Positions 3-43,055 of a DNA stretch of 44,612 nt are shown in pieces; the stretch's first letter is position 1, and each line of letters opens with the position of its first letter. The notes beneath the pieces are model-generated. The model was not told where the DNA came from, made no database searches, and saw only the letters and a list, made by a program, of their open reading frames with translations. Source of the DNA: a candidate division WOR-3 bacterium (GTDB taxonomy: Bacteria; Hydrothermota; Tepidihabitantia; Tepidihabitantales; JBDRVQ01); assembly GCA_039801905.1 (NCBI GenBank), contig JBDRVQ010000014.1, forward strand, positions 1-44,612. Direction: 5' to 3'. Made by a program: the position numbers and the translations under genes.

Positions 3-965
3 CGTTGTCCAGTAATTCCTTTACTCACCTCCTTTTCGGCAAAGGTGGCAGGGATGAAATTAAGGGAATATTCTACCAATGGCAAAGCGATGGCGAAGGC
101 ACAGATTATCGCCTGGGAAGAATTTGGTTGTGATGCCACTAACATTTTCTCCGAAGTGGGGATAATTGCGGAAGCGCTCGGTTCGGAATTCTTCTATCCG
201 GAAGATGATCTGCCCGTCCTTAAAACCCCCGCCCTTAATAGAAAAAATATTAAAGAACTTAAAATACCAGACCCTCATGCCACCGGGAGGTTGCCTGTCT
301 ACTTAGAGGCGATTGAACTTACTTATCAAACACTCGGTGATCGGGTGCCAATTCTGGCTTATCTGCCCGCTCCTTTTACTACGGCTATGTTCCTTATTAA
401 TCCGGAAGAATTTCTCATCAATACCATTCAGAATCCTTCTCTGGTGAAAGATCTCCTGGAAGTCTCTTTGCAAGCGGCGATAGAATTTTCCTCTGCCATA
501 ATTGATGCTGGTGGCTTGCCAATCATTGTTGACCCTCTGGCTTCCACCAGTGTAATCAGTCCCAAGGCTTTTAAGGAATTTGCCCTTCCTTATGAAAGGG
601 GACTGATAAATTTTCTCCATCGCTATGACCTTGATTGTATTCTTCACATCTGCGGTGATACCGAACCAATTCTCGATCTCCTCCCGGAGACGAACGCGGA
701 CCTCATCAGTTTGGATAAAGTGCCGATGAGTCTCATTTGCGAGAAACTGGGAAGGAAGATGCGAATTATTGGAAATTTCCCACCAACCAATCTTATCTTC
801 TCTTCGCCCGAGGCAATTAAGGAAGGGGTGAAAGAGATGGTGAAAATTGGCCGGAAAGCGGAAAAGGGTTATATCGCCGCCACCGGTTGTGAGGTTCCGA
901 TTAAAACCCCAAAAGAGAACCTTATGGCATTCGTAGAAGGGGCTAAGGAGGCAGGATGGTATTAG
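3..965 (+). CDS. UroD/MtaA-family cobalamin methyltransferase (5' partial)
   Basis: The reading frame is open to the left edge, so the start lies outside the window; about 320 residues are visible and the first ones already match the family fold. The sequence has a zinc-site pattern of corrinoid:coenzyme methyltransferases: His-x-Cys in HICGD (nt 645-653) and a distal Cys in ATGCEVP (nt 888). This pattern separates MtaA/MtbA/CmuA-type methyltransferases from true uroporphyrinogen decarboxylases, which use no metal. The likely role is methyl transfer from a corrinoid protein to a thiol or other acceptor in the cytoplasm. It overlaps the next gene by 10 bp, so the two are co-translated. The substrate cannot be read from the sequence; partner corrinoid and substrate-specific genes would be upstream, outside the window. 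Confidence 0.8.
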   Translation, partial: RCPVIPLLTSFSAKVAGMKLREYSTNGKAMAKAQIIAWEEFGCDATNIFSEVGIIAEALGSEFFYPEDDLPVLKTPALNRKNIKELKIPDPHATGRLPVYLEAIELTYQTLGDRVPILAYLPAPFTTAMFLINPEEFLINTIQNPSLVKDLLEVSLQAAIEFSSAIIDAGGLPIIVDPLASTSVISPKAFKEFALPYERGLINFLHRYDLDCILHICGDTEPILDLLPETNADLISLDKVPMSLICEKLGRKMRIIGNFPPTNLIFSSPEAIKEGVKEMVKIGRKAEKGYIAATGCEVPIKTPKENLMAFVEGAKEAGWY

Positions 966-1690
966 GAATTGATATTGGTGCTTGCTACACCAAAGGGGTA
1001 TTATTGGCGGAGGATGGGATTAAAGATAAAGTTGTAATCAAGACCGCCTTTCAACCCCAATTGGCAATTGAAGAGGTGAAAAAGAGGTTAATCGGCTACA
1101 AAAAAATAGTGGCGACGGGTTATGGGAGAAATTTAGTGACCGATGCCGATTTGATAATCACCGAGATTACCGCTTTTGCCCGGGGCGCTTCTTACTTTAA
1201 TCCGAAGGTGAGGACAGTTATTGATATTGGGGGACAAGATAGTAAGATTATAAAAGTGAAAGGTGGTAAGGTAGAGAAGTTCGTAATGAATGATCGCTGT
1301 GCCGCGGGCACCGGGAATTTCATTGAAAAGATTGCCCAATCCTTAGGGTTAACCCTTGAACAGTTCGGCAATTTAGCAGCCGAATCTTACCAACCGGAGA
1401 TGATCGATTCCCTTTGTGTCGTGATGGCGGAAACTGAAATCCTGAGTCTAATTAGTGAAGGAAGGAGGATAGATGATATTGCCGCTGGGGTTTGTGAGGC
1501 GGTCATCCGCAGGATTTTGGGGATTGGGGGGACGATTGGGATTGAAAAACCAATCTTCTTTTGTGGGGGAGGGGCAATCAATCCGGGATTGGTTAAGGCG
1601 ATAAAAAGGGTCATGGGAGAAGTAATCATTCCCGAATTCCCCCAATTCATTGGCGCTTTTGGAGCTGCCCTCTCCGCACAATCAGGATAG
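956..1690 (+). CDS. BadF/BadG/HgdC-type ATPase activator
   Basis: This 244-residue protein belongs to the ASKHA-fold activators of the 2-hydroxyacyl-CoA dehydratase / benzoyl-CoA reductase type. The first phosphate loop is DIGACYTKG (residues 6-14), the second is DIGGQDSKI (90-98). Cys115 in NDRCAAGTG and Cys154 in SLCVVMAET are the positions that hold the [4Fe-4S] cluster shared between the two subunits in HgdC. Known members use ATP hydrolysis to drive a low-potential electron into a partner enzyme. Here the gene overlaps a MtaA-like methyltransferase by 10 bp, so I infer that it reactivates a corrinoid protein or feeds electrons to an upstream dehydratase-like partner. The ATG at 956 gives the expected family length (about 250-260). 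Confidence 0.85.
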   Translation: MVLGIDIGACYTKGVLLAEDGIKDKVVIKTAFQPQLAIEEVKKRLIGYKKIVATGYGRNLVTDADLIITEITAFARGASYFNPKVRTVIDIGGQDSKIIKVKGGKVEKFVMNDRCAAGTGNFIEKIAQSLGLTLEQFGNLAAESYQPEMIDSLCVVMAETEILSLISEGRRIDDIAAGVCEAVIRRILGIGGTIGIEKPIFFCGGGAINPGLVKAIKRVMGEVIIPEFPQFIGAFGAALSAQSG

Positions 1691-31277: not shown

Positions 31278-31784
31278 TTAGAAGAGGACGAGTTTCTTCA
31301 CTGCCTTGTATCCGCCAGAAGAGAAGTGTAAGAAGTAGACTCCCCTTCTCAGTTTCTCTCCGGAGAAGGTAAAGGAATATATTCCTGGTTTCATTTTGGA
31401 AAAGGAGAGATTTCTTACCAGTTCTCCACAGGTATTGTAGATTGAGATTAAAACATCACCTTCCCTTGATAAGGAATAAGAGATTAGGGTATTCTTAGAG
31501 AAAGGGTTTGGTCTTATCGGGAAAAGTTCGGTCTTTAAGGGAAGTTTTTGGGTAGAGATTTCTTTCATGCCAACGAGGGCGGTATCAATCACCCAGAAAC
31601 CAATCTGAGCAACTTGATTGGTGCTTTGGATAATGCCGACTGCGGTCTGGGAGATTGAGACCTGGGCAGAGAGGTTACCGATACTGATCCTTGTGCCACC
31701 AGAACTTACCAAGTTCCAATCGCATTCGTATTGGGCATAAATTAAGGAAAAGATGCAGAATGAGATAATTGCTAACCTATTCAC
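31278..31784 (-). CDS. Small secreted protein with C-terminal sorting domain
   Basis: The 168-residue product starts at a GTG (31784) with GGAGG directly upstream. It has a signal peptide (LAIISFCIFSLIYAQ), a short central segment SIGNLSAQVSISQTAVGIIQ ... IGFWVID, and a C-terminal type IX-like sorting domain of about 80 residues (PIRPNPFSKNTLISYSLS, GDVLISIYNTCGELV, RGVYFLHF, final VKKLVLF). Very small size indicates a cell-surface accessory or stalk-like protein. It overlaps the end of the upstream head-repeat protein gene by 8 bp. Confidence 0.78.
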   Translation of the reverse strand: MNRLAIISFCIFSLIYAQYECDWNLVSSGGTRISIGNLSAQVSISQTAVGIIQSTNQVAQIGFWVIDTALVGMKEISTQKLPLKTELFPIRPNPFSKNTLISYSLSREGDVLISIYNTCGELVRNLSFSKMKPGIYSFTFSGEKLRRGVYFLHFSSGGYKAVKKLVLF

Positions 31785-34035
31785 CTTTCCTCCTTCTTTC
31801 AATCCCCTTTTCTATCTCTTCGGGTCTCCTTTTCATATCTTCGTATCTCTTTCTCCCTTCTGTGGTTCGGAAATCAATGCCACTTGCCTTTCCTTCCCGC
31901 TCTAGTTGCTCCATACAGCCAACAAGGAAGTCATCATCAAGCATCCTTCCTTTAAGTTCACCGGTCTTTGGTTGCTCAACGGGCATTAACCTTCTTATTG
32001 CCTCGGCTGAGACATCCTGCCGTTCACCGGTTACAAGCCAGTAGACTTTTGTTCCCGGCTTACCGCCAATGACAAAAGTATTGCCTTTAATATCTTCGGC
32101 AACATAGACATCAGAAGAGCCAACACCGGTCAACTGGATGTGTGGATTTCGGTTCAGGGCGGAGAAGTAATCAGGCAGTCTCACCTCCGCTTTGCCTGAG
32201 GCATCAAGGACAACACTGCCCCGATAGATATTGAGCATCTCCGGTCCTTCAATGAAGTAGTGGTTTAAAATCTTATTGTATGGGTCAAGGGGATGGTCAA
32301 TGGTAAAACTTCCACCGGCTTTGGAAAGTGTGCCGCAGCGAAGTTGATTGGAGGCGGTTGCGGCCTGGCCATTAAAGGCAGCGGAGTTACTATAAGTGGT
32401 TAGCACAACTGAGCGATTGCCGGTAGCAAAACTATAGAAGGCCAGAGCGGTATCTGCATAACCACCCGGCACTGTGGCGTAGGCATCTGCTAAGTTATTA
32501 CTACCACCACCAATTGAAGCACAGGCGTTGGCGGCGCTATTTTCCAAACCTCCAGCAACAGTAGAACCACTAAGACTTGTGGAGTTTCGGTATCCACCAC
32601 CGATCGTACTAAGATTCCCTACTGTTTTATTACCCGAACCACCGCCAATTGTTGAGTATTCACCCATTGCGGTATCACCAAAGCCCCCAGAGACTGTAGC
32701 AAAGTTATAAGCCAAATTTCCACTCCCGCCACCGATAACAGCGTAGTAGCCACTTATCCGGTTACTGCGTCCGCCACCGATGAAAGAGAATTTGTTATTC
32801 ACAGAATTCCCCCATCCACCAACAATCACTGCAAAAGAATCGTTTGCATCATCCCCAGCAGAATTTTGCCGACCGGAAAAAACTCCGGAAAAATTACCTA
32901 TCGCTGAATCTCTGTAGCCACCACCGACCGTAGAATGAATACCGGAGGCGGTGTTAAGAAGACCGCCTCCAACTGTGGAGTAATTGCCACTTATGGAGTT
33001 GTAATAACCACCACCAATCGTGGAATAGATGGCAGATATTCTATTTTCTTCACCACCACCAATCGTGGAATGATGAGAAGCAGCCGCTATGGTATTTGAC
33101 CCTCCTCCGCCAATAAAACCATAAGCGGAATTTACGGTATCTTGATAGCCACCGCCAATTGTAGCATATTCACCATTGGCGATATTGAGATAGCCACCAG
33201 AGACGGTAGCGGAAAAATCGCTTGCCACATTTGCCACACCGCCACCAATCGTTGATGCTTCACCACTTGCTTTATTAGAAGAACCACCGGCGATTGTCGC
33301 GAAGGCGCCGCTTCCCATATTCCGATAACCCCCGGCAACCGTACAATAAGAATAGTGCTGACCATTGGTCCCAGTGGTGCAAGCAAAACCAAGGTTTGTA
33401 TGGGTATAGCGGTAAGAGCCGTAAAGCATATTGTTAGAGCCACCCCGGGCAATACCCAATTGCCTTATTGTATAAAGGACCGAATCTGGTGTTCCCCGCA
33501 CCCAGGCATTATCACCACCAACTTCATCATTTCCTGGTGCCCAAGTTGTTCCGTTCCATTTTAAGACCTGACCCGTAGAAGCGCCCATCTGATTTAAGTA
33601 ATTTGTACTATCCGACCTTCTTGCAATATAAGAATAGGCGGAACTTGTAATTCTGACTCTTGGCGTCATTGCCGGATTGGGATTGACCTGCATCTCTAAA
33701 TATAAGTTGCCATCAAGGGGTAAAGAAGGAATTGGGTTGACACTTCCCAAAAGGGTATGGAAGAGACCGGCTCGGGTTTGAATTATTTGGGTTTCATTCC
33801 AGAAAGCAGTTCCCCCCGAAGGGACATTAAATAGGCGAAAGGTTACCGAATAGGAAGAATCCCGAACGGGATTACCTATATTATCGGTAATTTTACCTTG
33901 ATAGTTTAAGAGAAGGGGAATAGAGATTTGGTCGGTCTCAGGGAGTTGGGTATTTATCGGTTTTTCGTTCGGAAGAATAATATCTTTTGAACCAAAGGCA
34001 AGAAGAGATAAAAATAGGGGGAGATACTTAAACAT
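31777..34035 (-). CDS. Large repeat-rich surface protein with YadA-head-like repeats
   Basis: The 752-residue protein has a signal peptide (MFKYLPLFLSLLAFGS), an N-terminal domain found in fibre-type proteins (LLNYQGKITDNIGNPVRDSS), then about 20 head-like repeats of 14-20 residues with the core STIGGGxxNxxxG (residues about 230-560), as in trimeric autotransporter heads. A conserved C-terminal domain follows (AGGSFTIDHPLDPYNKILNH, VVLDASGKAEVRLPDYFSAL, GVGSSDVYVAEDI, GGKPGTKVYWLVTGERQD). The tail is very charged (RRPEEIEKGIERRRKGE). The ATG at 34035 is chosen for GGAGGTG just upstream. It is probably a trimeric fibre or surface structure. Confidence 0.8.
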   Translation of the reverse strand: MFKYLPLFLSLLAFGSKDIILPNEKPINTQLPETDQISIPLLLNYQGKITDNIGNPVRDSSYSVTFRLFNVPSGGTAFWNETQIIQTRAGLFHTLLGSVNPIPSLPLDGNLYLEMQVNPNPAMTPRVRITSSAYSYIARRSDSTNYLNQMGASTGQVLKWNGTTWAPGNDEVGGDNAWVRGTPDSVLYTIRQLGIARGGSNNMLYGSYRYTHTNLGFACTTGTNGQHYSYCTVAGGYRNMGSGAFATIAGGSSNKASGEASTIGGGVANVASDFSATVSGGYLNIANGEYATIGGGYQDTVNSAYGFIGGGGSNTIAAASHHSTIGGGEENRISAIYSTIGGGYYNSISGNYSTVGGGLLNTASGIHSTVGGGYRDSAIGNFSGVFSGRQNSAGDDANDSFAVIVGGWGNSVNNKFSFIGGGRSNRISGYYAVIGGGSGNLAYNFATVSGGFGDTAMGEYSTIGGGSGNKTVGNLSTIGGGYRNSTSLSGSTVAGGLENSAANACASIGGGSNNLADAYATVPGGYADTALAFYSFATGNRSVVLTTYSNSAAFNGQAATASNQLRCGTLSKAGGSFTIDHPLDPYNKILNHYFIEGPEMLNIYRGSVVLDASGKAEVRLPDYFSALNRNPHIQLTGVGSSDVYVAEDIKGNTFVIGGKPGTKVYWLVTGERQDVSAEAIRRLMPVEQPKTGELKGRMLDDDFLVGCMEQLEREGKASGIDFRTTEGRKRYEDMKRRPEEIEKGIERRRKGE

Positions 34036-34059
34036 AGACACCTCCGTATTTTCATAACT

Positions 34060-34088
34060 ATTATATAAAGAGAAATTCCTTTTGTCAA
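34060..34088 (-). promoter_or_regulatory. Promoter of the repeat-rich surface protein
   Basis: Minus strand TTGACA (34083-34088), 17-nt spacer, TATAAT (34060-34065). The message would have a leader of about 18 nt with a strong Shine-Dalgarno. A perfect palindrome GTGAATTTCAC (34091-34101) sits just upstream of the -35 box and could be an operator. Confidence 0.75.
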
Positions 34089-34125
34089 TAGTGAATTTCA
34101 CTTTCCGAGCGCAGGGAAATTAAAA

Positions 34126-34717: not shown

Positions 34718-34745
34718 TTGACACTGCCCACTATTTTGGTAGAAT
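34718..34745 (+). promoter_or_regulatory. Leaderless-type promoter of the flavodoxin operon
   Basis: TTGACA (34718-34723), 16-nt spacer, TAGAAT (34740-34745), AGGTA and then ATG at 34751. The -10 box ends 5 nt from the start codon. Confidence 0.72.
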
Positions 34746-34750
34746 AGGTA

Positions 34751-35221
34751 ATGCGGATATTGGTTGTCTTCTATTCCCGAACCGGAAACACAAGGAAGGT
34801 GGCAGAAGCGATCGCTAACCAATTGGGATGTGAGATGGAAGAGATTTTTGATACGAAAAAGCGGGAAGGTTTTTTGGGCTATCTGGTTTCCGGTTGGGAT
34901 GCGGCTCGGGAAAAATTGACTGTCCTGAAAGAGATAAAGAAAGACCCAAAAGAATACGATTTGGTGATAATCGGCACACCGGTCTGGTTTTTCAATATCG
35001 CCACCCCAATCCGGACCTATATCGTGCAGAATAAAGACCGACTGAAAGATGTCGCCTTTTTTGTCACTTATGGCGGTTCCGGAGGCAAAGGGGTTTTGGA
35101 GAAGATGGCGCAACTTTCTGGGAAAAGACCGGTTGCCCTCCTCTCCCTAAGGGAGAAAGAGGTTCTCACCGGAGAGTTCCTTCCCAAAATAGAAAACTTC
35201 GTAGCGGGGCTGAAAGGATAA
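34751..35221 (+). CDS. Flavodoxin-like protein
   Basis: The 156-residue protein has the FMN phosphate loop SRTGNT (residues 9-14), the hydrophobic strand LVIIGTPVWFFNIATPIRTY and the VTYGGSGGKGVL segment typical of long-chain-like flavodoxin and NAD(P)H-quinone-reductase folds. A single-domain FMN electron carrier is likely, in the cytoplasm. It precedes, within 13 bp, a membrane-anchored protein and a CcdA-like gene, suggesting a role in electron delivery. Confidence 0.85.
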   Translation: MRILVVFYSRTGNTRKVAEAIANQLGCEMEEIFDTKKREGFLGYLVSGWDAAREKLTVLKEIKKDPKEYDLVIIGTPVWFFNIATPIRTYIVQNKDRLKDVAFFVTYGGSGGKGVLEKMAQLSGKRPVALLSLREKEVLTGEFLPKIENFVAGLKG

Positions 35222-35234
35222 AAGATTATCGCTG

Positions 35235-35840
35235 ATGAAGATTTTTCGGTGGCGGATGATCTTCCCTTTTCTTTTGATTATTTTCTTTCTTCTTTCTCTC
35301 CTCTTCTCCTTAAAGAAAAGTAAAACAGCCAAGAAGAATTTTAATCTGGTGGTTGATTCCTTAAACCGGGAGATAATCTTTTCCGGTTTTTTGCAGAAGG
35401 ATACGGGCTGGGTGCAACATCTGATTTATCTTGAAGGTTATAAGTGGCTAAAGAATAATTCGGCGATCGTTTCTTCTTTAAGACTCAAAGATTTTCAAGT
35501 TGCCTTTGCCAGCCTTGATTTCTATCTCTGGGATTCGCTCTGGCAGAGAACAGGGGGGAGGAAGGTTGACTTATTCATTGAAGATATCCCAGCGGAGAGT
35601 TTGGTGCTTACCGATGATAAATTAAATCTCGGAGATTTTATCTTTTTGGGTTCGCCAAATTTTGATCACTTCGCCTTGGAAGGGATTTATGCGGATTGTG
35701 AAAGGTGTCCAATCTTTGATAAAGAGAAGGAGATTTTTGAGAAGTTGTTCATTCGCCAATCGGGAAGGAGTGGTTATTATCTCAATAAAAAAAAGTTCCC
35801 CAAAAAGCAGGAATTAAAAATTATGGTGAAGATAAAGTAA
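35235..35840 (+). CDS. Conserved-looking membrane-anchored protein of unknown function
   Basis: I do not recognise this 201-residue protein with confidence. It has an N-terminal membrane helix (residues about 8-26), after which the sequence appears exported. The rest has aromatic-rich segments (YLEGYKWLKNNSAIVSSL, FASLDFYLWDSLWQRT), FIFLGSPNFDHFAL, a CxxC-like DCERCPIF (Cys155, Cys158) and a C-terminal lysine-rich part. The start ATG follows flavodoxin by 13 bp; the stop overlaps the CcdA-like gene by 1 nt. A redox or maturation role is inferred only from its neighbours and the two Cys residues. Confidence 0.6.
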   Translation: MKIFRWRMIFPFLLIIFFLLSLLFSLKKSKTAKKNFNLVVDSLNREIIFSGFLQKDTGWVQHLIYLEGYKWLKNNSAIVSSLRLKDFQVAFASLDFYLWDSLWQRTGGRKVDLFIEDIPAESLVLTDDKLNLGDFIFLGSPNFDHFALEGIYADCERCPIFDKEKEIFEKLFIRQSGRSGYYLNKKKFPKKQELKIMVKIK

Positions 35841-36451
35841 TGGACTATCTCCAACTCTTTCTTTTCGGTCTTATTACTTCTTTTGGACCCTGCCTCTTTC
35901 TGTGCGCTCCTCTAATTTTTCCTCTCATTTTTACCCAGCCCAAGTATTTTTCCCTTTTTTTTCTTCTTTTTCGTCTTTTCGCCTTTGTTGCCCTTTCCCT
36001 TTTAGTATTTTCTTTTGGTAATTTCCTTTTCCGATTTTTGGTCCCTAATCGGGGCTTAATTTCAATTATCGCTGGACTTTTTCTCTTCTTCCTTGGCTTC
36101 TGGTCATTCTTTGGCAAGGGCCATTTCTTTTATCCGAAAAGATTCCAATGGGAGAACCGTTATTTTTTCTCAATAATCTTGGGAATACTCTTTGGTCTTT
36201 TGCCCTGTCCTCCCACCTTAGCGGTCTTAACTTATCTTATGCTGGAAGGGAAGACTTTTCTCAATGCCGGATATATGGGTTTAGCCTTTGCCTTGGGTGA
36301 GATGATTCTTCCCCTCGCAATTCTCTTTTTCTCCCAACCCCTTCTTTATCGGATTCGGAATGAGAAGTGGCTTCAAATTTCCCCTTTTCTTTCTTTAATT
36401 CTCTTTTTCCTTATCGGTTTTCAGTTATTATTGAGAGGACTACCAAGATAA
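35840..36451 (+). CDS. CcdA/DsbD-type or SafE-like membrane protein
   Basis: The 203-residue protein has six predicted membrane helices. The first carries SFGPCLFLCAP (Cys18, Cys22) and a later one LLPCPPTLAV (Cys123), the paired-Cys layout of the CcdA/DsbD/SafE group that passes electrons across the membrane to exported proteins. The Cys pair fits CcdA better than a simple anion channel. It is the third gene of the flavodoxin unit. Its 3' end overlaps a convergent gene by 41 bp. Function is inferred from fold; the target is unknown. Confidence 0.65.
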   Translation: MDYLQLFLFGLITSFGPCLFLCAPLIFPLIFTQPKYFSLFFLLFRLFAFVALSLLVFSFGNFLFRFLVPNRGLISIIAGLFLFFLGFWSFFGKGHFFYPKRFQWENRYFFSIILGILFGLLPCPPTLAVLTYLMLEGKTFLNAGYMGLAFALGEMILPLAILFFSQPLLYRIRNEKWLQISPFLSLILFFLIGFQLLLRGLPR

Positions 36452-38636
36452 GACTAAAAAGTTTAAGAACGAGAACAAAACTCTGAGCACAAATGATGCC
36501 GAAGATGGGGATGAAAAGGAGGGAACCGAAAAAGGCAGAAAAGGCTCCACCGGTTAAATCGGCGGCGAAGAGAAGTCCAACACTTTCTCCAAGTTTACTT
36601 TGGGAGGAGAGGCAAAGGGAATTAGCCAAAGGAAACTGGAAGCCCAAAAATAAACCGGAAAGGAAAGCGGCGGCAAAGATGAGGATTTCGCCACCAATTT
36701 GGGTCAGCGGTAATTCGGTCAGGGTGAGAATCAGAAAGGAGAGGAGGAGGATGAATAACTCGTTAACTAATAAGAGGTATCTCTTCATCTTTTCCGGCCT
36801 TTGATTGGTAAGGAGGCGAAGGGAAAAGAAACCGCCCATCGTTGAGCCGAAAAGGAAGGAGGTGAAGAGGAGGGTTACCCGATTAAAGAGATAACCGAAA
36901 CGCATTTGGAAGAGGTTAATCAGAAGAATGCTCTCCATCATCCCCCAGAAGCCGGTGGCAAAGAGGATGAAGGGGATAAATCTCCTCTTCTGGTGTAAGG
37001 TAGAAAGAAGGGCGAAAAGGAAAAAGAAGAGAGGGAAAAGAAGATAAGGGGTAAATGGGGTATTTTCCATTCTTTGATAGATTTTAGGCAATTTTGGGGA
37101 AGAGAGGTTGGTCAAATAGATTAAACTCTTTAAGAAGCCTTTTGGTTTTAGGTCTTGATTTATCGCTTTGACTTGGCAAGTGTCAGATAAGATTTCTTCT
37201 AATTTTTGGTAATAATGGGGGGCGAGGCGCGTCTTTAAGTATTCACGAGAGAAGACCTTGGTGGATAAATTTCTTTTAAGAAGACGGGTTTGGAAGGTAT
37301 CCGGATTAAGTCCTTGTTCTTTAGGAGAGGCGATGTAGATATTGATATCACCAAAGATTAAATAGAGATAGGGAAAGCAACTCTTTAAGGTTTGGTAATG
37401 GGTTAAAATTAAATCGCGCAAGGGTTCGCTAATATAACTGAGGGAAGAAGGGGAGATGGTAACTAAAAGGCCATCTGCCTTCAATTTTTTCCGACACTCC
37501 CAATAAAACTCTTTGGTAAAGTAGCGATTGAAATTTAGGGTTAAAGGGAGGAGTTGGTTGATGATGATTAGGTCGTATCTTTTAGATGGGGAGGATGTTA
37601 AAAACTTCCGACCATCCTGATAAAAGAGATTAACGCGGGGGTCAAATAATTCCTCCCGAGTGAGTGGGAGGTTTAAGTTTTTATAGGCAGTAATTATTTT
37701 TGGGTCTAATTCCAGATAGTCCACACTGGTAATCGGATGTTTTAATATTTCTCTTATTAAGCCGCCAATCCCTTGACCGATGAGGAGGCAGGTTTTTGGT
37801 TGGGGATGGGCAAGAAGGGAGAAATGGGCTATTTCTTCAATAAAGGTAATCTCGGGATTGGGAACGGTGGAGATGGGAAAGCCATCATAGAATAGGGTGT
37901 ATTCCCCTTCCTTTTTGGTGATGGTAATATTGCCGTATTTGGTATTTTCGTAATGGGTAATTTTCTCCCCTTGCCACCAGAAGGAAAGAATCGTGGGGCG
38001 CAATTTTGGTTCTAAGAAAAAGAGAGAGGTAAAGAGGGAGAAAGGGAGGAGAAATAATTGGGAATGTTTTGGCTTTAAGAGAAAAAGGATGAAGAAGTTT
38101 AGGGCGGATAAGAGAAAGGCAATCCGAAAGGGGGTGAGATGGGGAAGGAGCAGAAAATAGAGGAAAATACCACCCAGGATTGTGCCTCCATTCTCTAAGA
38201 TGTAGGTCTTGCCAATTGGCGCAACTGCTTCCCTCTCTTCCTTTGCGGCAAGGATTTGGGTCGTGATGGGGAAGAGGGCGCCGTGAAGGAGACTTAAAGG
38301 GAGAACGGTAAAGAGGGAAAGGAGGAAGAGGTGGGGGAGGATTAGAATCTCCCCAAATGTAAGCCCAAAGATTTTTCGGGAAAAAAATAAGAGGAAGAGG
38401 GTTAGGGGAAAGAGTGAGGCGAAAAGAAGATTCGTGAGAAAGAAAGAGGGGAGAGGGTTATCCTTTAAGGTTTTGCTTAAAGAGAAAGAGCCGAGACTTT
38501 CCCCAATTACCCAGATACCCAAAATGAGACCAACCGCCATTTCGTTTCCCTGGGCGGTAGTTAAGATTGAACGGAGGAGAAGGATTTGGGCGGTGATGCC
38601 CGATAATCCCAGAAGGAGAATATAGAAGGGGAACAT
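36411..38636 (-). CDS. Membrane protein with spermidine-synthase-like domain
   Basis: The 741-residue protein has three parts: an N-terminal membrane part (about six helices, residues 1-195), a methyltransferase-fold domain of the spermidine synthase group (residues about 215-480, with CLLIGQGIGGLIREIL, YLELDPKIITAYK and DGRKFLTSSPSKRYDLIIIN), and a C-terminal membrane part of about six helices. Such fused 'spermidine synthase-like' transporters exist in many FCB and deep-branching bacteria, but no substrate is known. The catalytic Asp pattern of true spermidine synthases is only partly present. It overlaps the CcdA-like gene tail-to-tail by 41 bp. Own promoter 38642-38669. Confidence 0.75.
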   Translation of the reverse strand: MFPFYILLLGLSGITAQILLLRSILTTAQGNEMAVGLILGIWVIGESLGSFSLSKTLKDNPLPSFFLTNLLFASLFPLTLFLLFFSRKIFGLTFGEILILPHLFLLSLFTVLPLSLLHGALFPITTQILAAKEEREAVAPIGKTYILENGGTILGGIFLYFLLLPHLTPFRIAFLLSALNFFILFLLKPKHSQLFLLPFSLFTSLFFLEPKLRPTILSFWWQGEKITHYENTKYGNITITKKEGEYTLFYDGFPISTVPNPEITFIEEIAHFSLLAHPQPKTCLLIGQGIGGLIREILKHPITSVDYLELDPKIITAYKNLNLPLTREELFDPRVNLFYQDGRKFLTSSPSKRYDLIIINQLLPLTLNFNRYFTKEFYWECRKKLKADGLLVTISPSSLSYISEPLRDLILTHYQTLKSCFPYLYLIFGDINIYIASPKEQGLNPDTFQTRLLKRNLSTKVFSREYLKTRLAPHYYQKLEEILSDTCQVKAINQDLKPKGFLKSLIYLTNLSSPKLPKIYQRMENTPFTPYLLFPLFFFLFALLSTLHQKRRFIPFILFATGFWGMMESILLINLFQMRFGYLFNRVTLLFTSFLFGSTMGGFFSLRLLTNQRPEKMKRYLLLVNELFILLLSFLILTLTELPLTQIGGEILIFAAAFLSGLFLGFQFPLANSLCLSSQSKLGESVGLLFAADLTGGAFSAFFGSLLFIPIFGIICAQSFVLVLKLFSLILVVLSIITENR

Positions 38637-40793: not shown

Positions 40794-43055
40794 ATGAAAG
40801 TTACTGACCCGGTCTGCGGGATGAGAATTGAAGATAAGGAGGCAAAGGTAAAGTTGGTCTATCAGGGAGTCACCTATTACTTCTGCTCGGAATGTTGTAG
40901 GGAGGCTTTTATTGAAAATCCCTCATCTTTTATTAAGAAGGAATCGCCGGTTGGGGAGCGGGCAAAAGACCCAATCTGCGGAATGGTTATCCCCAAAGAG
41001 AGATCAATCAAGAAAGAGATTGGTGGCCGGACCTATTACTTCTGCTCGGAGAATTGCCTCCGGACATTTCTATCCCCGGAGAAAGAGATGAAGGCGATGC
41101 GAACCCGGGTGAGTATCGCCTTGACCGGGGTGGTGGCTTTAGCAATCCTTCGGGCGCTTTTCTTTTTGGGACTGGCGGCTGGAGCAACAGTCCTCACTTG
41201 GGTGCCGATTAAATCTCTCCCTTGGTTCAATGGTGGGATCTGGCTATTTATTATCACCACACCGATTATTATCTTTGGGGGCAGGGGATTTTTTCTTGGT
41301 GCCTATCAGGGAATTAAAAAGCGGGTTGCCAATATGGACCTTCTTATCGCCCTCGGCACATCAACCGCCTATCTTTACAGTGCCCTGATTGTTCTCTTCC
41401 CAAAAGTCTTACCGGTAAAGGAAAAGAATCTCTATTTTGAAGTGGCGGCAATCATTATTGCCTTTGTCCTTTTGGGAAGATATATGGAAGAGATAATTAA
41501 GAAGAGGAGTTCTTTAGCCATCCGAAAGTTGCTTGATTTGAAACCGCAGACCGCCCGGGTGATCAGGGAAGGAAGGGAAATTGAGATACCAGCGGAATCG
41601 GTTATGGTTGATGAAATTGTCGTGGTGAAACCCGGGGAGAAGATACCGACCGATGGGATAATTATTGAAGGCAATTCAACGATTGATGAGAAGATTTTGA
41701 CCGGAGAAAGTATGCCGGTGGAGAAGGGTGTGGGGGATGAGGTGATTGGGGGGACACTCAATAAGTTTGGCACATTTAAGTTTCGGGCAACCAGGGTCGG
41801 TTCGGAAACAACTCTCGCCCAGATCATTAAGATGGTAGAAGAGGCGCAAGGCACTACAGCACCCATTCAGAGATTGGCGGATAAGGTTGCTTCTTATTTC
41901 GTCCCGGCGGTGATTGGTATCGCCTTTCTTTCGGCTCTTATCTGGCTCCTTAAAGGAAATTCTACGACTGCGCTTTTATCGTTCGTGGCGGTCTTAATTA
42001 TTGCCTGTCCCTGTGCCTTGGGTATTGCTACCCCAGCCGCTTTGCTGGTGGGAGTTGGCAAGGGAGCGGAGATGGGGATTCTGATTAGAGGGGCAGAATA
42101 CTTGGAAAAGGCAGAGAAGTTAAAGACAATTGTCTTTGATAAGACCGGAACTTTGACCAAAGGGGAACCGGAGGTGAAAGAGATTGTCTCTTTCAATCAG
42201 GTTTCTACCAGAGAGATATTAAAAATGGCGGCAATTGCGGAAAAGGGCTCAGAGCATCCTTTGGCTCAGGCAGTCATTAAGAAGGCAAAACAAGAAGGGA
42301 TTGAGATTCCCGAAGCAGAAGGTTTTGAAGCAATCCCCGGCTATGGGGTTAAGGTTTTTTTAAATGGTAAAGAGATTCTGGCTGGCAACCGGAAATTAAT
42401 GGCGGAGATGGGAATTGCGCTCGGTGAGAAAGAGAAGATAATCTCCGATTTAGAAGAGAAAGGAAATACGGTTATGATTTTGGCAAAGGAAAAGGAGATT
42501 GTCGGTTTAGTGGCGGTGGCGGATACATTAAAAGAATTTGCCAAAGAGGCGATAGATGATTTGCGAAGAGAAGGATTAGAAATTTTTCTTTTAACTGGTG
42601 ACAATGAGCGGACCGCGCAGGCGATTGCCTCTCAGGTTGGTATCGGAAAAATTATTGCCAATGTCTTGCCCAAGGATAAGGCGAAAGTAATTAGCGACTT
42701 ACAAAATGCAGGTAAAGTGGTGGCGATGGTTGGCGATGGGATAAACGATGCCCCGGCACTGGCACAAGCGGATATTGGTATCGCAATTGGTAGCGGTTCG
42801 GATGTGGCAAAAGAGGCAGGCGGAATTATTTTGGTGAAGGATGACTTGCGGGATGTGGTGAAAGCGATAAGATTGAGCAAAAAGACGATGGGGAAGATAA
42901 AAGAGAATCTCTTTTGGGCATTTATCTATAACACCTTTGCGGTGCCGATTGCCGCCTTTGGACTACTCAATCCAATCGTTGCTGCGGCGGCGATGGCTTT
43001 AAGTTCCTTATCGGTGGTGACAAATTCTGCTCGGTTGCGATGGGTAAAGGTATGA
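40794..43055 (+). CDS. copA: Copper-type P1B ATPase with two N-terminal YHS domains
   Basis: The 753-residue pump has YHS metal-binding domains at residues about 1-47 (TDPVCGMRIEDKEA, YYFCSECCREAF) and 58-100 (KDPICGMVIPKE, YYFCSENCLRTF) in place of the usual heavy-metal-associated (HMA) repeats. The ATPase core has CPCALGIATPAALLVG (transport motif near residue 404), DKTGTLTKGEP (phosphorylated Asp near 449), SEHPLA, GDGINDAPALAQADIGIAIG and the C-terminal MALSSLSVVTNS. The CPC and MxxSS motifs fit Cu(I) export. No copper chaperone or regulator is adjacent. Confidence 0.88.
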   Translation: MKVTDPVCGMRIEDKEAKVKLVYQGVTYYFCSECCREAFIENPSSFIKKESPVGERAKDPICGMVIPKERSIKKEIGGRTYYFCSENCLRTFLSPEKEMKAMRTRVSIALTGVVALAILRALFFLGLAAGATVLTWVPIKSLPWFNGGIWLFIITTPIIIFGGRGFFLGAYQGIKKRVANMDLLIALGTSTAYLYSALIVLFPKVLPVKEKNLYFEVAAIIIAFVLLGRYMEEIIKKRSSLAIRKLLDLKPQTARVIREGREIEIPAESVMVDEIVVVKPGEKIPTDGIIIEGNSTIDEKILTGESMPVEKGVGDEVIGGTLNKFGTFKFRATRVGSETTLAQIIKMVEEAQGTTAPIQRLADKVASYFVPAVIGIAFLSALIWLLKGNSTTALLSFVAVLIIACPCALGIATPAALLVGVGKGAEMGILIRGAEYLEKAEKLKTIVFDKTGTLTKGEPEVKEIVSFNQVSTREILKMAAIAEKGSEHPLAQAVIKKAKQEGIEIPEAEGFEAIPGYGVKVFLNGKEILAGNRKLMAEMGIALGEKEKIISDLEEKGNTVMILAKEKEIVGLVAVADTLKEFAKEAIDDLRREGLEIFLLTGDNERTAQAIASQVGIGKIIANVLPKDKAKVISDLQNAGKVVAMVGDGINDAPALAQADIGIAIGSGSDVAKEAGGIILVKDDLRDVVKAIRLSKKTMGKIKENLFWAFIYNTFAVPIAAFGLLNPIVAAAAMALSSLSVVTNSARLRWVKV

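What the first reader, a model, noticed from the sequence alone, without database searches (positions are those of the whole stretch)
34751..36451. Compact three-gene set: flavodoxin, unknown exported protein with CxxC, CcdA-like electron conduit
The genes share a promoter and are 13 bp apart or overlap by 1 nt. The unknown middle protein has an N-terminal helix, aromatic-rich segments and a DCERCP cysteine pair that probably faces outside; the third has the paired-Cys helices of CcdA/DsbD. A reducing pathway from cytoplasmic flavodoxin through the membrane to an exported cysteine protein is a reasonable idea, but such a flavodoxin-coupled route is not one I know as described.
Basis: inference. 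Interest (0 to 1): 0.55.

Follow-up and report, generated by a model that had tools for sequence, protein, structure and literature searches.

The report
YdjY-like exported protein beside CcdA
Three tightly packed bacterial genes include a membrane protein of the kind that carries electrons across the cell membrane and a probably exported two-cysteine protein, which looks like a distant relative of the uncharacterised E. coli protein YdjY; the pair may form a reducing route to the cell exterior, while the neighbouring flavodoxin gene is probably not a fixed part of it.

Summary
The three ORFs are real. The middle protein matches no Pfam or NCBIfam family itself; my searches found its family in five genomes, with the CxxC invariant in all five. 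One relative, in MAG UBA9088, matches the NCBIfam YdjY-domain model (28.7 bits, E 9.5e-7, below the cut-off of 50), and an alignment places the CxxC on two of YdjY's three cysteines. I read it as a divergent, membrane-anchored YdjY-like protein. It lies directly beside a DsbD_2/CcdA gene, with a 1-nt overlap, in two of five loci: the window and UBA9088. In the other three genomes (one genus) it overlaps a sugar-transferase gene and DsbD_2 lies elsewhere. Flavodoxin is adjacent only in the window, and no homologue was detected in the other four genomes. In UBA9088 that place holds an activase and part of a double-cubane reductase, genes that also neighbour true YdjY genes in three genomes of the window's phylum. 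Best reading: CcdA reduces the CxxC of an exported YdjY-like protein; the target is unknown, with a weak contextual hint at selenium or sulfur. A flavodoxin-coupled pathway is not supported. Compact spacing is ordinary here.

The parts
34718..34745 (+). sigma-70-type promoter-like site (TTGACA-16-TAGAAT), 5 nt before the first ATG, so a leaderless or near-leaderless transcript is possible
   Evidence: consensus scan, 11 of 12 matches; 6 sites found against 3.2 +/- 1.9 expected, so only suggestive
34751..35221 (+). flavodoxin-family protein, 156 aa
   Evidence: Pfam Flavodoxin_4 42 bits (cut-off 24), Flavodoxin_5 40.2 (27), Flavodoxin_3 33.2 (27.5); homologues in 7 of 11 other genomes searched, not in the 4 of these that carry the middle gene
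35235..35840 (+). YdjY-like membrane-anchored protein, 201 aa (the 'middle protein')
   Evidence: no Pfam or relevant NCBIfam match for this copy; 37-45% identical to four relatives; the UBA9088 relative matches NF040466 ydjY_domain at 28.7 bits, E 9.5e-7, cut-off 50
35256..35312 (+). hydrophobic N-terminal helix of the middle protein (residues 8-26)
   Evidence: hydropathy; helix 4-30 in the model
35697..35708 (+). CxxC (C155-E-R-C158) of the middle protein
   Evidence: both Cys invariant in 5 of 5 rows; aligned to the second and third of the three conserved Cys of six YdjY rows
35840..36451 (+). CcdA/DsbD_2-type thiol-disulfide electron conduit, 203 aa, about 6 TM helices
   Evidence: PF13386 59.7 bits, E 4.8e-16; C18 and C123 invariant in 12 of 12 rows that I chose to align, window included; six hydrophobic segments

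Best explanation
The functional unit is the middle gene plus the CcdA gene. The middle protein is a divergent YdjY-family domain, held on the outer face of the cytoplasmic membrane by an N-terminal helix instead of YdjY's lipid anchor. Its CxxC is a redox-active dithiol. CcdA takes electrons from a cytoplasmic reductant, most likely the ordinary thioredoxin of the cell, through its paired TM cysteines and reduces that CxxC. The reduced protein then reduces an extracytoplasmic partner, which is unknown; gene contexts of true YdjY relatives weakly suggest selenium or sulfur compounds. The flavodoxin is a neighbour, probably co-transcribed, and not a conserved part. Shown by computation: the ORFs, the CcdA family, Cys conservation, adjacency in two distant genomes, and a sub-cut-off link to YdjY. 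Inferred: orientation, redox activity, the electron donor, the direction of flow and the target.
For: DsbD_2 match with C18 and C123, in hydrophobic segments 1 and 4, invariant in 12 of 12 chosen rows. CxxC invariant in 5 of 5 middle proteins and their only Cys in 4 of 5. Middle gene and CcdA gene overlap by 1 nt in the window and in L043; L043's composition fits another contig of its own bin best among those compared (GC 0.353 against 0.350, tetranucleotide correlation 0.78), so mis-binning is unlikely. YdjY kinship: NF040466 E 9.5e-7 for L043, alignment along the length with the CxxC on the YdjY Cys site, and model confidence of pLDDT 61 / pTM 0.56 without and 78 / 0.71 with YdjY rows (the query also changed from the window copy to L043, so this is not a clean control). 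Thioredoxin-family matches in all five genomes. Context: activase and part of a double-cubane reductase beside L043's pair; double-cubane reductase beside true YdjY genes in three genomes of the window's phylum, one genus.
Against: In 3 of 5 genomes (one genus) the middle gene is not beside CcdA but overlaps a sugar-transferase gene. The window copy and three other members match no YdjY model. Profile comparison with one YdjY gave 0.2% and with a narrow set of seven 7.7% probability, and my own narrow YdjY model did not find the family (L043 best domain 2.1 bits). The CcdA copies of the window and L043 are not shown to be sisters. The helix flanks are about equally charged, so orientation is unproven. 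No solved fold matched either model. Close packing is common in this window.
Confidence: 0.5

Rival explanations
1. One reading: cytoplasmic flavodoxin donates electrons directly to CcdA, which reduces the exported CxxC protein; the three genes are one pathway.
For: One apparent operon, with the best promoter-like site before the flavodoxin. In L043 the upstream place holds an activase and part of a double-cubane reductase, another low-potential electron source, so an interchangeable low-potential donor is conceivable.
Against: Flavodoxin adjacent in 1 of 5 loci; no homologue detected in the four other genomes with the middle gene. Related flavodoxins sit in other neighbourhoods. Close packing is common. 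Three paper searches that combined CcdA or DsbD with flavodoxin or ferredoxin and the passages read showed no flavodoxin-fed CcdA.
Confidence: 0.1
2. The middle protein is a cofactor or metal carrier (Fe-S, Cu, or a Se/S species held by the CxxC) rather than a dithiol relay, and CcdA only keeps its cysteines reduced so that they can bind.
For: YdjY is annotated as a 4Fe-4S-type protein and has three conserved Cys in the rows aligned, of which two align with the CxxC. A YedE-type putative selenium transporter is in the cluster of true YdjY genes (L120 tested).
Against: With only two Cys in 4 of 5 members a 4Fe-4S cluster within one chain is unlikely. The 4Fe-4S label of YdjY is weak: three Fer4-type Pfam models score 12.3-15 bits, under their cut-offs.
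Confidence: 0.25
3. The three genes are merely neighbours; the CcdA serves the cell's TlpA-like lipoprotein or other thiol partners, and the middle protein has a separate envelope task, as beside the sugar transferase in the sister family.
For: Dense gene packing. Thioredoxin and an AhpC-TSA/TlpA-like protein encoded elsewhere in the genome. Middle gene without adjacent CcdA in 3 of 5 genomes.
Against: The pair recurs with the same 1-nt overlap in L043, in another phylum set. The genome has a second CcdA-type gene (PF02683) beside a thioredoxin-domain protein, so this CcdA need not serve that partner.
Confidence: 0.25

Closest known systems
YdjY domain family (NCBIfam NF040466; E. coli YdjY, b1751)
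   Same: N-terminal anchor, the 'vvD..n.ev' start, a Cys site and the C-terminal part align along the length; one relative matches the model below its cut-off; members of both kinds sit beside double-cubane reductase or activase genes.
   Different: Two Cys (CxxC) instead of three (CxxCxxxC); hydrophobic helix without the lipobox-like Cys; beside CcdA in two loci, whereas E. coli ydjY lies between ydjX and ydjZ.
CcdA / DsbD_2 thiol-disulfide conduits with exported thioredoxin-like partners, for example the F. nucleatum ccdA-msrAB and ccdA-eTrx clusters (PMC12288474, passages read)
   Same: CcdA-type membrane protein encoded beside a probably exported Cys protein.
   Different: The partner here is not detected as thioredoxin-like by sequence, and no fold match was found.
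DsbD-based flavinylation clusters with DUF3570, DUF4266 and thioredoxin-like proteins (PMC8238504, passages read)
   Same: A DsbD-type conduit paired with an uncharacterised Cys-motif protein.
   Different: Those use PF02683 DsbD, ApbE and flavinylated proteins; here PF13386, and I recognised no such genes by eye among the neighbouring ORFs, of which only four were scanned.
Double-cubane reductase (DCCP) and its ATPase reductase, linked by others to selenium metabolism (PMC10418091, PMC5322559, passages read)
   Same: Activase and a C-terminal DCCP piece (117 bits, under the cut-off of 350) stand upstream of the pair in L043; DCCP over cut-off stands beside true YdjY genes in three genomes.
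   Different: Not beside the pair in the window; the window's genome has DCCP on another contig.

Membership tests
YdjY domain family (NF040466) | whole-protein score above the curated cut-off (50 bits) | tested here: not met
   28.7 bits for the L043 relative, no match for the window copy or the three other members
YdjY domain family (NF040466) | significant similarity to the model (E well below 0.001) for at least one close relative | tested here: met
   L043 member, 45% identical to the window copy, E 9.5e-7
YdjY domain family (NF040466) | three conserved Cys, C-x2-C-x3-C | tested here: not met
   only C-x2-C at this site in all 5 members; in six YdjY rows three Cys align in this motif
YdjY domain family (NF040466) | exported and membrane-anchored | tested here: inconclusive
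   N-terminal hydrophobic helix, flank charges about balanced
CcdA / DsbD_2 (PF13386) | score above the curated cut-off | tested here: met
   59.7 bits against 24.9
CcdA / DsbD_2 (PF13386) | one Cys in each of TM1 and TM4 | tested here: met
   C18 and C123 lie in hydrophobic segments 1 and 4 and are invariant in 12 of 12 chosen rows
CcdA / DsbD_2 (PF13386) | transfers electrons across the membrane | not testable with these tools
   -
flavodoxin | score above a Pfam flavodoxin cut-off | tested here: met
   Flavodoxin_4, _5 and _3 above cut-off; Flavodoxin_1 and _2 below
exported thioredoxin-like partner of CcdA | thioredoxin fold | tested here: inconclusive
   no sequence match and no fold match at E <= 0.001; absence of a match is not proof
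conserved three-gene flavodoxin pathway | flavodoxin gene beside the pair in other genomes | tested here: not met
   no homologue detected in 4 of 4 other genomes with the middle gene

The most novel reading that the evidence does not exclude
A low-potential cytoplasmic donor, flavodoxin here and a double-cubane reductase with its ATPase in UBA9088, drives a CcdA conduit that reduces a YdjY-like dithiol protein outside the cell, which in turn reduces selenium or sulfur species for uptake. This would be a new input to CcdA and a first function for the YdjY family.
Probability: 0.08. Interest if true: 0.75.

Novelty: new variant of a known kind. Interest (0 to 1): 0.36.

Why it matters
In the papers held here I found none on the function of YdjY: the search for its name listed 8 papers, none about it by title or abstract, and in the one whose passages I read it appears only in an expression table. 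A divergent form whose gene overlaps that of CcdA gives a concrete, testable idea: YdjY-type domains may be extracytoplasmic thiol carriers fed by a CcdA/DsbD conduit. It would also add a partner with no detected thioredoxin similarity to the list of CcdA clients. The sample is small (five genomes, two adjacent pairs), so this is a lead rather than a result.

Tried and rejected
Flavodoxin as a conserved third partner: rejected as unsupported. Thioredoxin fold for the middle protein: no support. The second (L043 copy, 78): best Foldseek E 1.2, best VIA Z 3.4 (102 aligned, rmsd 4.4). Both are at noise level. YdjY kinship by direct profile comparison failed with a single E. coli YdjY, with seven YdjY rows and with my own narrow HMM; it rests on the broader NCBIfam model and on the alignment. 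In a whole-genome search the same model gives the L043 copy only 17.1 bits, E 0.003. Co-occurrence of double-cubane reductase: over cut-off in 22 of 147 genomes of the phylum, among them the window's genome and the three YdjY genomes, but in none of the three sister-family genomes with the middle gene, so it is context only. A tree of 17 CcdA-type proteins places L043 nearest to the window copy by path, but the window copy is a long branch and no supported group holds it. Viral contigs and plasmids: no relatives of the middle protein. Taxonomy of UBA9088: name not found.

Full report
What is there. Three + strand ORFs, 156, 201 and 203 aa, lie at 34751-36451 with a 13-nt gap and a 1-nt overlap. 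The best promoter-like site ends 5 nt before the first start codon. The first product is a flavodoxin, the third a DsbD_2/CcdA-type membrane protein, and the second has no Pfam match at E <= 1, only a weak irrelevant NCBIfam match (E 0.26), and no solved relative by sequence (best E 1.3). Dense packing is the rule in this window: 24 of 32 adjacent same-strand pairs in my ORF picking are 13 nt or less apart, so spacing alone says little.

Where the middle protein occurs. In 150 whole genomes of relatives it was found in 4 including the window's own. A profile search of 147 genomes of the phylum gave the same four plus four weak hits at E 0.02-0.09 that I did not count. None of the 18 other genomes in that MAG's phylum set had it at E <= 0.01. 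So five genomes are known from these searches; the pattern scan can miss diverged relatives.

Cysteines and topology. C155 and C158 are invariant in 5 of 5 and are the only Cys in 4 of 5; L043 has one more. A hydrophobic N-terminal stretch is present in all five, but the charges on its two sides are about equal, so the side of the CxxC is not given by sequence alone.

Gene neighbours. In L043 the middle gene is followed by a DsbD_2 gene with the same 1-nt overlap, and preceded by an acyl-CoA dehydratase activase and the C-terminal part of a double-cubane reductase near the contig end (117 bits, under the cut-off of 350 for a whole protein). I saw no flavodoxin there, and none was detected in that genome. 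The contig fits its bin by GC and tetranucleotides. In the three sister-family genomes, one genus, the middle gene overlaps the gene of a bacterial sugar transferase, near a polysaccharide-export SLBB gene (both tested in L025; the other two read alike), and DsbD_2 genes lie on other contigs. Of 12 genomes that I chose for the test, 8 including the window's have a flavodoxin homologue at E <= 0.001, but none of the four others that carry the middle gene does. By my reading of translated ORFs, not by an HMM, several of its relatives stand upstream of release-factor, methyltransferase and NAD-kinase genes (L099, L101, L103) or near a methionine-sulfoxide-reductase gene (L110, L111).

What family it is. 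Four of five members match no YdjY model, but the L043 member matches NF040466, YdjY domain, at 28.7 bits and E 9.5e-7, below the curated cut-off of 50 bits. MAFFT aligns the middle family with YdjY proteins along the length (13-17% identity of the window copy to the six YdjY rows), with the CxxC on YdjY's second and third Cys and one residue less between them. Direct tests with one YdjY, with a narrow set and with my own narrow HMM failed. I take that to show that those sets were too uniform, but it counts against until a broader profile comparison is made. Model confidence was higher with YdjY rows, though the query also changed. I put the kinship at about 0.85 by judgement. By the curated rule it is not a member, and it lacks one of the three conserved Cys.

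What true YdjY genes stand beside. In the phylum YdjY-domain genes occur in 3 of 147 genomes, one genus. In L120 they are clustered with a double-cubane reductase, an activase, a sodium/solute symporter and a YedE-type putative selenium transporter, all tested, and a methyltransferase by reading; L121 reads alike, and in the third genome (G060) the same kinds of genes are split over two contigs. The double-cubane reductase is over cut-off in all three genomes. Passages of PMC10418091 and PMC5322559 link the double-cubane protein, YedE and activases to selenium metabolism, mostly by gene context. In one sister-family genome the DsbD_2 gene lies about 2 kb from a selD gene (L097). These are hints at selenium or sulfur chemistry and no more.

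Mechanism. From what is established for CcdA/DsbD (passages of PMC8238504 and PMC12288474), the third protein should pass electrons from cytoplasmic thiols to an exported disulfide. The neighbour with an invariant CxxC and an anchor is the natural client. Thioredoxin-family matches exist in all five genomes, so the ordinary kind of donor is available and no flavodoxin input need be assumed. The genome has a second CcdA-type gene (PF02683) next to a thioredoxin-domain protein, so this copy may be free for another partner. The final acceptor is unknown.

Verdict. Observation confirmed. Interpretation partly supported: exported CxxC protein plus CcdA plausible, flavodoxin coupling not supported. 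The new element is the link of the middle protein to the uncharacterised YdjY family and its recurrence beside CcdA in a second lineage. I call it a new variant of a known kind.

Noticed in passing
window 31777-34101 (-): Large protein with many YadA-head-like repeats (motif named from recall); by reading, genes with a similar start stand beside DsbD_2 genes in L039 and L106.
   Followed up: no
window 36411-38636 (-): Fused MFS/spermidine-synthase-type protein, its gene overlapping the CcdA gene tail to tail; a gene of the same type lies within about 2 kb of the DsbD_2 gene in L096, with an AmmeMemoRadiSam radical SAM gene between.
   Followed up: partly
window 45-1690 (+): MtaA/CmuA-type methyltransferase followed by an acyl-CoA dehydratase activase, possibly part of a corrinoid methyltransferase cluster like those of PMC10418091.
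   Followed up: no
window 40794-43055 (+): P-type ATPase with two YHS-domain stretches.
   Followed up: no
window 34718-34753: The -10-like box ends 5 nt before the ATG, so the flavodoxin mRNA may be leaderless.
   Followed up: no
L130 5557-7596 (-), own genome contig C35: The window's genome has its own double-cubane reductase (469 bits) and, by reading, an activase next to it; I saw no YdjY-like gene nearby.
   Followed up: partly
L109 2538-4724 (+), own genome contig C33: Second CcdA-type gene (PF02683) beside a 407-aa thioredoxin-domain protein; by reading, a small CxxC thioredoxin and an arsR/arsC-like pair are also there.
   Followed up: partly
L120 5651-8058 (+): Two YdjY-domain lipoprotein-like genes with two other small ORFs between them; more than one YdjY copy also in G035 and G060.
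   Followed up: partly
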